The translations under genes and the position numbers were made by a program. A stretch of DNA of 64,000 nucleotides from Moniliella sp. 'wahieum'. Taxonomy: Eukaryota > Basidiomycota > Moniliellomycetes > Moniliellales > Moniliellaceae. The stretch lies in assembly GCA_003971905.1 (NCBI GenBank), contig RSEE01000060.1, forward strand, positions 248,001 to 312,000, in the 5' to 3' direction. Below the pieces are notes generated by a model. It saw only the letters and a program-made list of their open reading frames with translations. It did not search any database and was not told the DNA's origin. How positions within the stretch are numbered: position 1 is the stretch's first letter; each line of letters opens with the position of its first letter. This document shows, piece after piece, positions 1 through 64,000 of this stretch.

Positions 1-1
1 G

Positions 2-962
2 GCCTCCCACTCGTGCCGCACGGCCTCTGGCCTGCGCGCCATCCACGTCTCCGCCCGCCTCAGCGGTCCAGGCGACGCTAGCTCCGCCGCTCCGCCGCCG
101 CTCTACCCTGGCCACGTACGCCTCTCAGGACTGCAGCGTGCCTTCCTGGCCTTCGGGGCCGCCGGAACCGCATTCCTCAACCCAGCGCGCGGGGATATGG
201 TCGCTGTTCTTTCGGAGGCGTCCGGTCCTTCCTTCCTGCCCCGCCTGCGCGACCAGATGATCTCCACCGCCGAGGGACGGCGCTTGCTGCTCGAAAAGCC
301 AACGATCAATACCCACACAGTCGACATGGCGTACCTCAAGTCTCTTCCCGACGGATCATTTGGTCGAGTCTACGTCGACTGGCTCAATTGGTGCAACGTT
401 TCCCCCGACACACGCAAGCCTGTACGTTTCTTCTTGTTACTCTTTCTCTTCTCTTCTCTTCGTTTCTGTTCTCTCTCCTCTGCTAACGCGAACACCACAT
501 AGGTGCGGTACATTGATGACCTGGAACTGCGCTACGTGCTGCAGCGGTACCGCGAGTGCCATGACTTTTACCATGTTCTCTGTGGCATGCCTGTCTCCCA
601 GGGGTGAGACGGTGACCAAGTGGTTTGAGGCAGCGCACATGCACCTCCCTATGGCCGCTCTTGCGTCGATTGCGGGGCCAACTCGGCTGCGGGGCACAGA
701 CCTAGTCATCTTTCCGCAACTGGCACGATGGGCTGTCCAGATGGGTCAACAGGCTAAACCTTTGATCGCTGTCCGATGGGAGTCCCGCTGGGAACAACCG
801 TTCGACCAGGTCCGCAGGGAACTCAACATGACTCCACCCCGGTCCAGTTGGAGTACACCCCTCGTCGCGGACCGCGCAAGCTTCCCTTCTCCACGCGCAT
901 TGTTGAGGCGCGCGACAGAGGGCTATGGCCGCGCCCCTTGTGAGTCTGGGCCTACGCAGTAG
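2..962 (+). CDS. COQ4: COQ4, ubiquinone biosynthesis protein, 5'-truncated by window edge
   Basis: COQ4 is a mitochondrial inner-membrane protein that organises the coenzyme Q biosynthetic complex. The frame is open from base 2, so the start codon and presequence lie upstream of the window. The conserved family block is visible: YPGHVRLSGLQRAFLAFG, ARGDMVAVLSE, LPRLRDQM, EGRRLLLEKP, then VSPDTRKP. A GT-AG intron (422-502, 81 bp, branch-like tgctaac at 481-487) separates it from VRYIDDLELRYVLQRYRECHDFYH. That exon carries the zinc-ligand HDxxH motif, followed by KWFEAAHMHLPM, RWAVQMG and ESRWEQ. The frame breaks at about 602 in a GGGG run and resumes one frame over (GETVTKWFEA). The stop is at 960-962. 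Identity is secure; the exact C-terminus depends on repairing the break. Confidence 0.93.
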
Positions 963-2960
963 ATGGGATGGGTAGGACACTTGGGTGCCATATCGCACTC
1001 TACCGTCCTGCCCCAGCAAAACGTCAAGGGTGGTCTGTGCAATGCAGGCAATGAAAGGATGCTCCCCGGGCGTCCCAAAAAAAGACGCATTCTCTTCGTC
1101 ACTATCATACATGCGCACCCCCCACTCCAGCTCTGTAACATGTAAGCCCTACTGCAGTATTTTGTAGTTGGCTACGATCGAGATCCACACAAGGGCCCAC
1201 GATTCTCTTGTGGAATCGCTCTGTCTCTCGCACCAATTCTCAGCGAAAAAAGTTAAAGAAGGATCTGGCCTGCCCATTGGCCCCCAAGGCGGTTCTAATT
1301 CACTGAGCTTATCTTCGACCTCTCCATCCGTCCAAGGACATAGACTGATGCTCGCGTCTCGAAGAATTTAACTTTGACATGGGACAACTCCTGGCTCCAT
1401 CGGTCGAGAAAAGAGTTTGTCCAAGTTCTGTTGACGGTGTTCTTGAACCCGATCTGGTCCAGCATGCATCGTCGCATTTTCGAGTTGGCGGTACGTTGTG
1501 TGCACATACCGCGGATATGACCTTAAGATTGAAGCTTGACGTCTGTTGCTTGCAGTCAGAGATATTGACTTTGGGTCATTTCAGCCCGTGGTTTTGGATG
1601 CATCGAGCCAGGAGGACTGGGTGCGCCAGGCTTCGTCATGGACAGCAAAGGTTTGGGGGGGGGTATAGGGACTAACACGCAAGCTGTCGTACCCATGGTG
1701 TCTCATCGGAAAGTCGTGAACCTCCTTCTGGCTGCAGCAATTTATGAGGAAATGTTCGGGGGCATGCACAGCCAGACTCACCTCCACCAGGGGCAGGGAA
1801 TCAGGATCCCGGGACAACCAGGTTGAGATCGGCGAGGATGTTGATGAGCTGCCACTGAGAGGAAGACCTCACTGGCACAACGAGCCACGCATCCGGAAAG
1901 GGCACCCAAGAGACGAAAACAATGACGCGTGGGCGGAGATCCAAACGTTGATTGACGATGAACCCCGCCCGTGTCATGGAGAAGTGCCGTGCAGAGAGCA
2001 GTGGTATACCAAAACGGTGGAATGGGTCAACGGAATTTCTGCTCTTCTTCACTTTTCTCCTCCTTCAGCAGCTATTTCAGGACTCTCACCAACCCCCCCC
2101 TCTGCCCTACTACGAAAACACACTGTAAGATGATCGCGAAGCCCCATTGCTTTGGAGGAGAACGTGGCCACACGAAAGATGTAGATATGTGGTCCTGTCT
2201 GCTGAAGGGGCATCGCATTTCAAGCGGAACGTTTAGGCTGCGATGGCGAAAGTTGATGTGGCCGCAGGTCAGAATGGACACCCTAATAACCCACCAAAAA
2301 TATAAGCGGTTGTGCCTGTCATAGTTTGGCTGATCTCGCTCCCATTTCCAATTTCTTCGTCTCGAGCGTCTCGCTCCTTCCTGTCCTTCCACTTCGCACC
2401 ATGTCCTCTGTTCTTGCTTCTTCCCCACGAACGATTGCTACACCCCTTGGCCTAGTCCGATCCTGGTCTCTCTCGCCTTAGCCCCGACTGTGACAGTGCC
2501 CCACACATGGAAACAGAACGAGTTGATCTTTGGGCGATCCTTCCCCAACGGAAGCAGACAAAACAACACGAACAGCTTAACCTTTTGGCAGAGCGGCTTG
2601 GAACAAGTTGAGCAGCACTGTGGGCATGTGGACCGTGCCCTCGCTCCAGCCGACCGGGCACAACACATTGCCCGGCCGCAGTCCGCTTGGGATGGTGCTG
2701 CGTATTGCGCTACAGACGCCCCATCGCGGCCACGCAACTGCCCTCGTGCCCCATCTCGCCCCACCCGTCGGTTATAGTCGTACAGCCGATCCTGCTCGAT
2801 CGTCGGCAATCTCGTTGGGACGCCGCTGGGCAGCCGCCTCGCTGCCCCCCGTCCCATCGCTATCGCCATCTCCATCGCCATCCCACCATCGCCATCCCCA
2901 CCATCGCCATCCCCACCATCCTAGCCCAAGCCCTACCGTCCCATCGCTATCTCACCAGCC
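963..2960. other. Intergenic, weak minus-strand coding-like remnants
   Basis: No gene can be supported here. Minus-strand frames at about 1295-1507 and 1801-2052 give short peptides with a protein-like look but no recognisable motif, and frames do not connect. A TATA-like element (tataagcgg, about 2301-2309) precedes an ATG at 2401 in good context, but that frame closes after 26 codons. Short CCATCGC-type direct repeats lie at about 2870-2925. Confidence 0.4.
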
Positions 2961-61904: not shown

Positions 61905-63911
61905 TCAGGTGGCCACATATGTGCCTGCCTCCGAAGAGCGTGTGGGTAAGGTCAGCGTACGGGTTCCCTCTACAAGTGAGAGGCCCACTTGGGACGAGGT
62001 AAAGGGCGTGGTCCAGGAAGCCGTGAGGGTTGCGGGGAAGACGTGCCAAAAGCGGCAGCGCAATTTGGTTTCCCCCTGTGGCAGCGTCCAGCGAGCCGTG
62101 CGGGTGGACGATCCCACTGACCCGGGGGAAGGGATTGCATGCTGTCCACGGTTCCCGGGGCGAGGAGGTCTGAAGGACCAAGTCCTGTAGCGGCTTGTGC
62201 ATGATATTCGACCAGCAGTCTAGGTGGCCCTTCCCCTCCCTCCAATGCGGCGCGAGAGTGAGCGGGACATGGTCCGCCGTCTTGCTCGCTGGATCCACTT
62301 GGACTTGGTACTTGGCCAACACGCATCTACCCGAACCAATAAGTCCAGCAAGGGTCAGAACATATTCTCCCTCCTTTGCGTTCGGCTGAAAGAAAGCTGG
62401 GTTCAATGAGAACCGATCTAGCCCAGCGGCATTTTCGAGGCGGACGGTAACCTGTCGGCTACCATCAACGCAGGGTCCAGCTGAGCTAGCATCTCCCCCA
62501 CAACCAACAGACGATTGACCTCCCCGCCCACAAAGTATGCGTTGACTTTCTCTTTGACTTGGAGGTTCAGCCCCCGATGTCAGGAGGGAAAGATTGAGAG
62601 GCGGGGCGTGGAACGGGTTGTCCCGCCCCAAGCGGGGGGACGAACGACGGTGTGGGTTGCTGCTGCTCGAGGGGGCCAAAGTACCACGAATCGACTGAAG
62701 TGCCGCCTTCTGATGCAGGTGAAATGGGGGTTGAAGGGATTGGCTCAGAAAGATGGTATGAATGGCTATTTCCCATACGGGCATGCCCAATTCCCCTTCA
62801 ATCCATCTCGCGAAACTGCGAGCCTAGTGTCTGGAGACTGGGGCGGGAGGAGAAACGAATCACCCGACCCCTCGTCACCTCGGGTGGAGGTGGGTCATGT
62901 ACCGATCACTTAACAGGCAGAACCTTCCCCCAAGACGGAGGGGAAGGTGGGCATGTCCCCCGATCCGACGAGAAAAGAACTTGCTACACGTTTACCCGCA
63001 AGCATGGTACGTCCACGACGAATCAAGCTGGTTGGCTCCTCGGTTTCGGGCGAGTGCTCCTGGAACCCGGGAGAGGTGGTGGTCCTTATGTTGCCACCCG
63101 AGCTTGGTCAACGCACCTCGTATTCCAGTCTTCTCCGGGAGACTAGGTACAGACGAGCTGCGCTGGTCGCGCGAAACGTGACCGCGTGCTAATTCAAGGC
63201 TTTTGTAAGTGGGCGCTGGGCCGCTTCCTGAAAGCCGGAGCGGGGGAGCAGGACGACGGTGCCTCCCGCTTGCCTGGACAAAGGCGAGCAGCTCCTTCTG
63301 TACATCAAACGCGAGCGAGGCCTGTAGAGCTAGGTCAGCTGCACCTGCCAGCTGGGTACTGGTGTCAGCTGCGCCCGTCTCAAAGCGAGTCAGACGACAT
63401 CCTTGATGAGGGTGAGGCGTTGCTGGTCGGCCTGTTGGGCAAGGCCAAAGGCCGGCATCGCCTCCTCCCGCCATCGATCTGGGTCGGTGTCGGCCAAAGG
63501 AAGTGCCTGCCGGAGCCTGGCTTGGATGGCAGGGACCTGGGCCCATGGGCCGTTGGAGGGAGCGTTGCGAAGAAGCTGAACACAGTGTTCGACCGTTTGC
63601 TCACGGGCACGGTGGACTTGGACCAAGGCATCCACCTCGCTCATCAGAGCGTCGAGGATGGGACGGACGTCGTCTGGGACGATATGGTCGTGGCTAAAGA
63701 AGGGGCGCTGGGCCAGCTTGGAGAGGGCGCGTGCATGATCCGCGTCGATTGCGCGACGGGCTGAAAAGTACTCAGCTAGCTCGTCCGTCAGTGTGGCAGC
63801 TTGGCGGAAACGCTGCTCCAGCCGCTGGATGGCGTCGGCAGGGTCGGAGGACAAGAGGGCCTGGGCATAGGCTTGGGGCGATAGGTCGGCGCTCTTCATG
63901 GGGAAGAACAC
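61905..63911 (-). CDS. Syp1/FCHo-like F-BAR and mu-homology endocytic adaptor
   Basis: Muniscins (yeast Syp1, animal FCHo) bind membranes with an F-BAR domain and recruit Eps15/Ede1 and cargo with a C-terminal mu-homology domain at nascent clathrin sites. The start is MFFPMKSADLSPQAYAQALL (63911), with Met 5 as alternative. F-BAR: DAIQRLEQRFRQAATLTDEL, EYFSARRAIDADHARALSKL, VDALVQVHRAREQTVEHCVQ, then DLALQASLAFDVQKELLAFV. The mu-homology domain starts at about 62.5 kb: RQVTVRLENAAGLDRFSLNP, EGEYVLTLAGLIGSGRCVLA, KYQVQVDPASKT, HVPLTLAPHWREGKGHLDCW. It closes LPTRSSEAGTYVAT, matching the AGKYVA-like terminus of the family; stop at 61905. The gene is about 2.0 kb, shorter than many muniscins: the linker is brief. 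Frame breaks at about 63.40, 63.2, 62.8 and 62.08 kb. Confidence 0.83.
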
Positions 63912-64000
63912 ACAGGTCGACGTGGTTGTTGAGGGGAGGCAGAAGAAGAAGGAGACGAGTGGAGGGACTACACAAAAGCACTAACGATCCCCACAGAAAA
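63912..64000. promoter_or_regulatory. 5' flank of the F-BAR gene
   Basis: Read on the minus strand this is a pyrimidine-rich leader ending just before the ATG. The full promoter lies beyond the window. Confidence 0.4.

What the first reader, a model, noticed from the sequence alone, without database searches (positions are those of the whole stretch)
1..64000. Frame breaks in almost every conserved gene
COQ4, GH47, RIC8, the NAK kinase, the Nvj2-like gene, PAL1, MCCB, the permease, ARPC1, Brc1-like, the carboxypeptidase and the F-BAR gene all continue in another frame after 1-2 nt shifts, with family-level conservation kept on both sides. Several breaks sit in or beside G/C runs of 4-6. Real pseudogenes would also show missense decay and in-frame stops, which I do not see. 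The best explanation is uncorrected long-read indel error; annotation pipelines would split these genes or call false introns.
Basis: partly seen in the sequence, partly recalled or inferred. Interest (0 to 1): 0.75.

Follow-up and report, generated by a model that had tools for sequence, protein, structure and literature searches.

The report
Assembly indel errors break fungal genes
Most conserved genes in this stretch of a smut-related fungal genome look broken because the assembled sequence has lost or gained single letters, a known kind of sequencing artefact, and not because the genes are dead or read in an unusual way.

Summary
The frame breaks are really in this sequence but are best explained as assembly (consensus) errors. 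The window lies in a 69.5 Mb, 223-contig assembly; protein relatives place it in Ustilaginomycotina. A collinear second copy of the region (contig C58, mostly 91-93% identical) lets breaks be tested. Against outside homologs, GH47 has 16 frame shifts in the window and 1 in C58; carboxypeptidase S10 has 8, C58 6, and two further genomic copies 0; MCCB has 6-7, C58 2. No in-frame stop lies on these window paths. In S10, 16 of 16 frame-breaking indels are private to one copy, whereas 31 of 70 substitution columns follow the copies' kinship. The window's copia element shows 5 private deletions and no private substitution against 8 near-identical copies. Two CCT-eta chaperonin copies differ by 4 indels and 0 substitutions over 1,893 columns. 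Frame changes without room for an intron occur in 31 of 42 CCT/Cpn60 loci scored. Low interest as biology, useful as a warning.

The parts
104..839 (+). COQ4: Pfam pieces in two frames; intron and indel shares not resolved
   Evidence: PF05019 in frames 2 and 3; also in two frames in C58
11339..16392 (-). Ty1/copia element with many near-identical copies; used only as a yardstick of indel error
   Evidence: 22 long matches of 99-100% identity scored out of 2262 candidates; 5 private deletions and no private substitution against 8 copies; no insert at the C58 site
21566..23716 (-). GH47 alpha-mannosidase, 16 frame shifts, 15 of them called as losses
   Evidence: P0141; C58 copy has 1
24470..25397 (+). 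RIC8: frame change with overlapping DNA, no room for an intron
   Evidence: PF10165 pieces 45-218 and 225-366; C58 split over three frames at other places
38585..38821 (-). SMP/MMM1-like stretch of the Nvj2-like gene
   Evidence: PF10296 19.1 bits, cut-off 21.9; shifts against C58 frames
42177..42260 (-). PAL1 fragment
   Evidence: PF08316 24.5 bits, cut-off 25; region shifts against C58
45705..47646 (+). MCCB: 6-7 frame shifts and one true intron (46022-46198)
   Evidence: gaps against C58 listed
48185..49890 (-). amino-acid permease; long open frame, then breaks
50529..51850 (+). ARPC1, split over two frames in the window
   Evidence: one frame in C58
54860..56853 (-). BRCT-rich Brc1-like gene, domains in three frames (introns between them not excluded)
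57919..59801 (-). serine carboxypeptidase S10, 8 shifts in the 1.08 kb covered by the closest homolog, one true 72-nt intron upstream
62221..63830 (-). F-BAR/muHD gene, muHD in two frames

Best explanation
The breaks are consensus errors of a highly contiguous, incompletely polished assembly that carries both haplotypes (and diverged duplicates) of a Ustilaginomycotina fungus. Single bases, mostly losses, were miscalled at a patchy density that reaches about 4-8 per kb in some genes. Shown here: in the gene with enough copies to test (S10) the breaks are private to one copy; the three homolog-tested genes still look selected; and the same kind of break occurs elsewhere in the genome. Inferred: the reads were long and error-prone, and low local coverage or cross-mapping of similar copies during polishing made the density patchy.
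For: S10: 16 of 16 frame-breaking events are private to one of five copies (window 8, C58 6, C23 2, C8 0, C2 0), while 31 of 70 substitution columns split sister pairs; Fisher p = 0.0004. GH47 (P0141): 45 substitutions against C58, by codon position 5/6/34, no new stop, with 17 short and 2 long 1-2 nt gaps in the window. Copia: 5 private deletions, no private substitution in the window copy; 8 other copies differ pairwise by a mean of 2.9 indel events and 0.5 substitutions. CCT-eta pair C11/C28: 0 substitutions, 4 indels, 1,893 columns; four other close CCT pairs show 16 gaps to 24 substitutions, 10 to 26, 11 to 32 and 38 to 36. Frame changes with no intron room in 31 of 42 CCT/Cpn60, 16 of 49 HSP70 and 6 of 6 GH47 loci. 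The five copies of the CCT-eta group fetched each carry at least one (one named eta by NCBIfam, the others grouped by 82-99.7% DNA identity). The closest database relatives of MCCB and S10 (P0001, P0121) are uninterrupted proteins over the same stretch.
Against: With the homolog as referee, the window copy holds more amino-acid departures than C58: GH47 8 to 1 (P0141) or 5 to 2 (P0142), MCCB 8 to 1 (P0001) or 10 to 0 (P0002), S10 4 to 2. These cluster beside gaps (GH47 13 of 19 and MCCB 8 of 15 replacements within 15 nt, versus 10 of 33 and 2 of 30 synonymous changes), which fits misplacement or base error next to indels, but relaxed selection is not fully excluded. Window S10 against C8 is less third-position biased (11/8/20). 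The copia copy carries only about 1 per kb, less than GH47 or S10; pooled reads from many copies would explain this but were not shown. Frame-breaking gaps between the haplotypes are rarer in third-position-biased frames (8.3 per kb) than in other open frames (about 15.8 per kb), so many gaps outside genes are probably natural variation. Homopolymer bias is weak. MCCB losses do not clearly dominate (3 short to 1-2 long gaps). No reads, transcripts, second strain or control fungus were available.
Confidence: 0.95

Rival explanations
1. Real pseudogenes: one haplotype or subgenome is decaying because other copies supply the function.
For: The genome holds several diverged copies of some genes, so redundancy exists; the window copy has an excess of replacements.
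Against: No in-frame stop on the window paths of GH47, MCCB or S10; third-position bias kept against C58; frame-breaking indels outnumber private substitutions in window S10 (8 to 6); in 3 of the 5 close CCT pairs both copies carry counted breaks; the five CCT-eta-group copies fetched are all broken.
Confidence: 0.03
2. Ordinary spliceosomal introns misread as frame breaks.
For: True introns exist: MCCB 176 nt (184 in C58), S10 70-76 nt.
Against: The aligner priced introns below frame shifts and still called shifts; only 1 (HSP70), 5 (CCT/Cpn60) and 2 (GH47) frame changes left room for an intron, against 26, 48 and 12 that did not.
Confidence: 0.01
3. Programmed frameshifting or another recoding used throughout the genome.
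For: Families stay conserved on both sides of the breaks.
Against: Sites are not shared between the copies of S10, and neighbouring MCCB breaks are separate; 0 shifts in the C8 and C2 copies of S10 with the closest homolog; no fixed shift size.
Confidence: 0.005

Closest known systems
Indel errors in long-read assemblies that truncate or fragment predicted genes (PMC8445201, T. brucei, passages seen; PMC12007338, Kastor, passages seen)
   Same: [quoted passage not shown] brucei work), and genes fall apart without being pseudogenes.
   Different: The Kastor passages tie most such errors to homopolymers; here runs of 4 or more hold only about 15% of one-base window-short gaps. Both haplotypes are present here and separately broken.
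Frame shifts made by collapsing heterozygous alleles (PMC8445201, passages seen)
   Same: Nearby allelic differences can mislead read alignment and add indels.
   Different: Here the two copies are assembled apart (C58, C60), so simple collapse is not the cause, though cross-mapping may be.

Membership tests
assembly indel error | indel-dominated differences between near-identical copies | tested here: met
   copia copies and the CCT-eta pair C11/C28
assembly indel error | breaks private to each copy | tested here: met
   16 of 16 in S10; only S10 had enough copies
assembly indel error | breaks also in genes the cell needs, genome-wide | tested here: met
   CCT/Cpn60 31 of 42 loci scored; no control fungus was run; essentiality of CCT is recalled
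assembly indel error | reads disagree with the consensus at the breaks | not testable with these tools
   no reads held
pseudogene | in-frame stops | tested here: not met
   0 stops on window paths of MCCB, GH47, S10
pseudogene | substitutions spread evenly over codon positions | tested here: not met
   window against C58: GH47 5/6/34, MCCB 6/3/32, S10 4/2/14; S10 against C8 weaker, 11/8/20
pseudogene | excess of replacements in the broken copy | tested here: inconclusive
   excess present but clustered at gaps
programmed frameshift | same site in related copies | tested here: not met
   no shared frame-breaking gap in S10; MCCB breaks at 46551 and 46557 are separate
spliceosomal intron | room for an intron at the frame change | tested here: not met
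   86 of 94 frame changes in HSP70, CCT/Cpn60 and GH47 leave under 35 nt

The most novel reading that the evidence does not exclude
A minority of the window-only breaks are real, young inactivating indels in one haplotype of a recently hybrid or duplicated smut-lineage genome, hidden among many assembly errors; the excess of replacements in the window copies would then be partly true relaxed selection.
Probability: 0.05. Interest if true: 0.45.

Novelty: not a real feature. Interest (0 to 1): 0.12.

Why it matters
Gene catalogues, pseudogene counts, selection tests and claims of gene loss drawn from this assembly would be wrong unless the indels are recognised. The within-assembly tests used here (haplotype partner, near-identical repeats, chaperonin genes) point to such faults without any reads.

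Tried and rejected
A codon-by-codon dN/dS on the aligner's paths was rejected: misframed codons inflated the substitutions (117 in 599 codons for GH47, against 45 in 1,941 nt by DNA alignment). In one search, group g2 (3 of 20 CCT loci fetched) was dropped because its reference open frame gave only 54-59% identity and is probably a wrong-strand frame; 3 more loci (L055, L058, L060) had no partner and were not grouped. In one search many of the 208 open frames used as queries are probably not coding, so only coarse use is made of it. With distant S10 homologs (52-61% identity) the aligner also called shifts in copies that the closest homolog calls intact or nearly so (P0122: C8 1, C23 3, C2 4; P0124: C8 1, C23 3, C2 2); most lie upstream of the part P0121 covers. 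C58 GH47 showed one stop near its N-terminus with P0141. The MCCB rate printed paired 7 shifts with the wrong length and is not used. A bacterial promoter scan was pointless. Pfam scans of 18901-21902 (+ strand) and 33901-36902 (both strands) gave nothing above cut-off. Paper searches did not identify the assembly; the species remains unknown.
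Full report
What was checked. The window is G000:C60:248001-312000, part of a 69,493,810-base, 223-contig assembly. MCCB relatives place it in Ustilaginomycotina (Pseudozyma flocculosa, Violaceomyces, Thecaphora, Exobasidium and Tilletia are among the best named hits). The SMP/MMM1 match (19.1 bits, cut-off 21.9) and the PAL1 match (24.5, cut-off 25) fall just short.

A partner copy. C58 is collinear with window 1-62672 (segments 86-95% identical, the two longest 91.5 and 92.9%), and lacks the copia element. Over 54,022 aligned columns there are 2,172 substitutions, 413 gaps of 1-2 nt where the window is short, 327 where C58 is short, and 241 longer gaps. 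In window bins 20-22 kb, which hold much of GH47, there are 22 window-short and 5 C58-short small gaps and no longer gap. Outside genes many gaps are probably natural: frame-breaking gaps run at 8.3 per kb in 12 third-position-biased C58 frames (of 228 frames tested) and about 15.8 per kb in 160 unbiased ones.

Breaks against outside homologs. An aligner that allows introns (cheaper) and frame shifts (dearer) gave: MCCB, window 6 (P0001, P0004) or 7 (P0002, P0003), C58 2; GH47 with P0141, window 16, C58 1; S10 with P0121, window 8, C58 6, C23 2, C8 0, C2 0. The two zeros are the aligner's negative control. Other GH47 homologs gave 18, 12 and 13 in the window and 2, 1 and 1 in C58. More distant S10 homologs gave 14 and 7 in the window, 12 and 12 in C58, and 1-4 in C8, C23 and C2. 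True introns were found too: MCCB 46022-46198 and S10 72 nt, at the matching place in C58.

Private, not inherited. In a five-copy S10 alignment all 16 frame-breaking events belong to one copy each; gaps of 3 and 6 nt occur in the window, C23 and C2. Of 70 substitution columns that divide the four closer copies by a sister split or a single departure, 31 follow the sister pairs; 4 mixed columns and 181 where only C2 differs were left out (p = 0.0004). In MCCB, breaks that looked close in the two haplotypes (window 46551 and 46557) are separate gaps on opposite sides.

Selection is still visible. Substitutions between window and C58 fall at codon positions 5/6/34 in GH47 (P0141), 6/3/32 in MCCB (P0002) and 4/2/14 in S10, with no new stop; window S10 against C8 is weaker, 11/8/20. 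Against this, replacement differences more often depart from the homolog in the window: 8 to 1 or 5 to 2 in GH47, 8 to 1 or 10 to 0 in MCCB, 4 to 2 in S10. They crowd around gaps: 21 of 34 replacements against 12 of 63 synonymous changes lie within 15 nt of a gap in GH47 and MCCB together (which keeps the columns next to gaps that one search leaves out; p = 4e-5). I read this as misplacement or base error beside indels; a small part could be relaxed selection.

Near-identical sequence. The window's copia copy has 5 private deletions and no private substitution against eight copies, plus one base more than 7 of the 8 in a run whose length varies; those eight differ pairwise by a mean of 2.9 indel events and 0.5 substitutions in about 5 kb. 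One search scored 22 such copies of 2262 candidates; eight were fetched. Two CCT-eta copies, C11 and C28, show 0 substitutions and 4 indels over 1,893 columns; four other close CCT pairs show 16 gaps to 24 substitutions, 10 to 26, 11 to 32 and 38 to 36. Recent mutation would be expected to give mostly substitutions (recalled); long-read consensus error gives mostly indels (passages of PMC8445201).

Elsewhere in the genome. From the match tables, frame changes with less than 35 nt to spare occur in 31 of 42 CCT/Cpn60 loci (48 events), 16 of 49 HSP70 loci (26 events) and 6 of 6 GH47 loci, window and C58 included (12 events); 5, 1 and 2 further frame changes left room for an intron. No control fungus was run, pieces were grouped into loci by a simple rule, and only the best candidates were scored in each search. 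The five CCT-eta-group copies among the 20 stretches fetched each carry at least one; only one of them was named eta by NCBIfam, with its model split over two abutting frames. CCT subunits are essential in yeast (recalled), so a living cell with all copies broken is implausible; further copies may lie among the loci not fetched.

Nature of the errors. Losses dominate in GH47 (17 short to 2 long gaps) and S10 (6 to 1 against C58), not clearly in MCCB (3 to 1-2), and in copia (5 to 1). Runs of 4 or more hold 49 of 327 one-base window-short gaps, against 7.6% of bases; 218 of 327 lie in runs of 1-2. Density is patchy: about 7.6 per kb in GH47 and S10, about 1 per kb in the copia copy, and 1-2 small gaps per kb on each side at 51-53 kb. 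Pooled reads from many copia copies would lower its error; that step is inferred.

Verdict. It is ordinary as biology.

Noticed in passing
L053-L072 (CCT loci), L009, L010, L020, L021: Genes occur in close pairs (five CCT pairs at 95-99.7% DNA identity) and also in diverged copies (five CCT-eta-group copies down to 82%); hits on C107/C63, C108/C98 and C8/C23 also come in pairs, suggesting a hybrid or duplicated, haplotype-separated genome.
   Followed up: partly
11339-16392: Ty1/copia element with 22 long matches of 99-100% identity scored elsewhere and no insert at the partner site, so probably a recent burst of transposition.
   Followed up: partly
49967-50061: A tRNA gene match on the minus strand (47 bits), similar to some 25 places in the genome, was not listed by the whole-window Rfam and ARAGORN scans.
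   Followed up: partly
52187-54935: Transcription-factor-like gene (zinc-cluster-like by eye, no family scan) with long open frames and few small gaps, beside badly broken neighbours.
   Followed up: no
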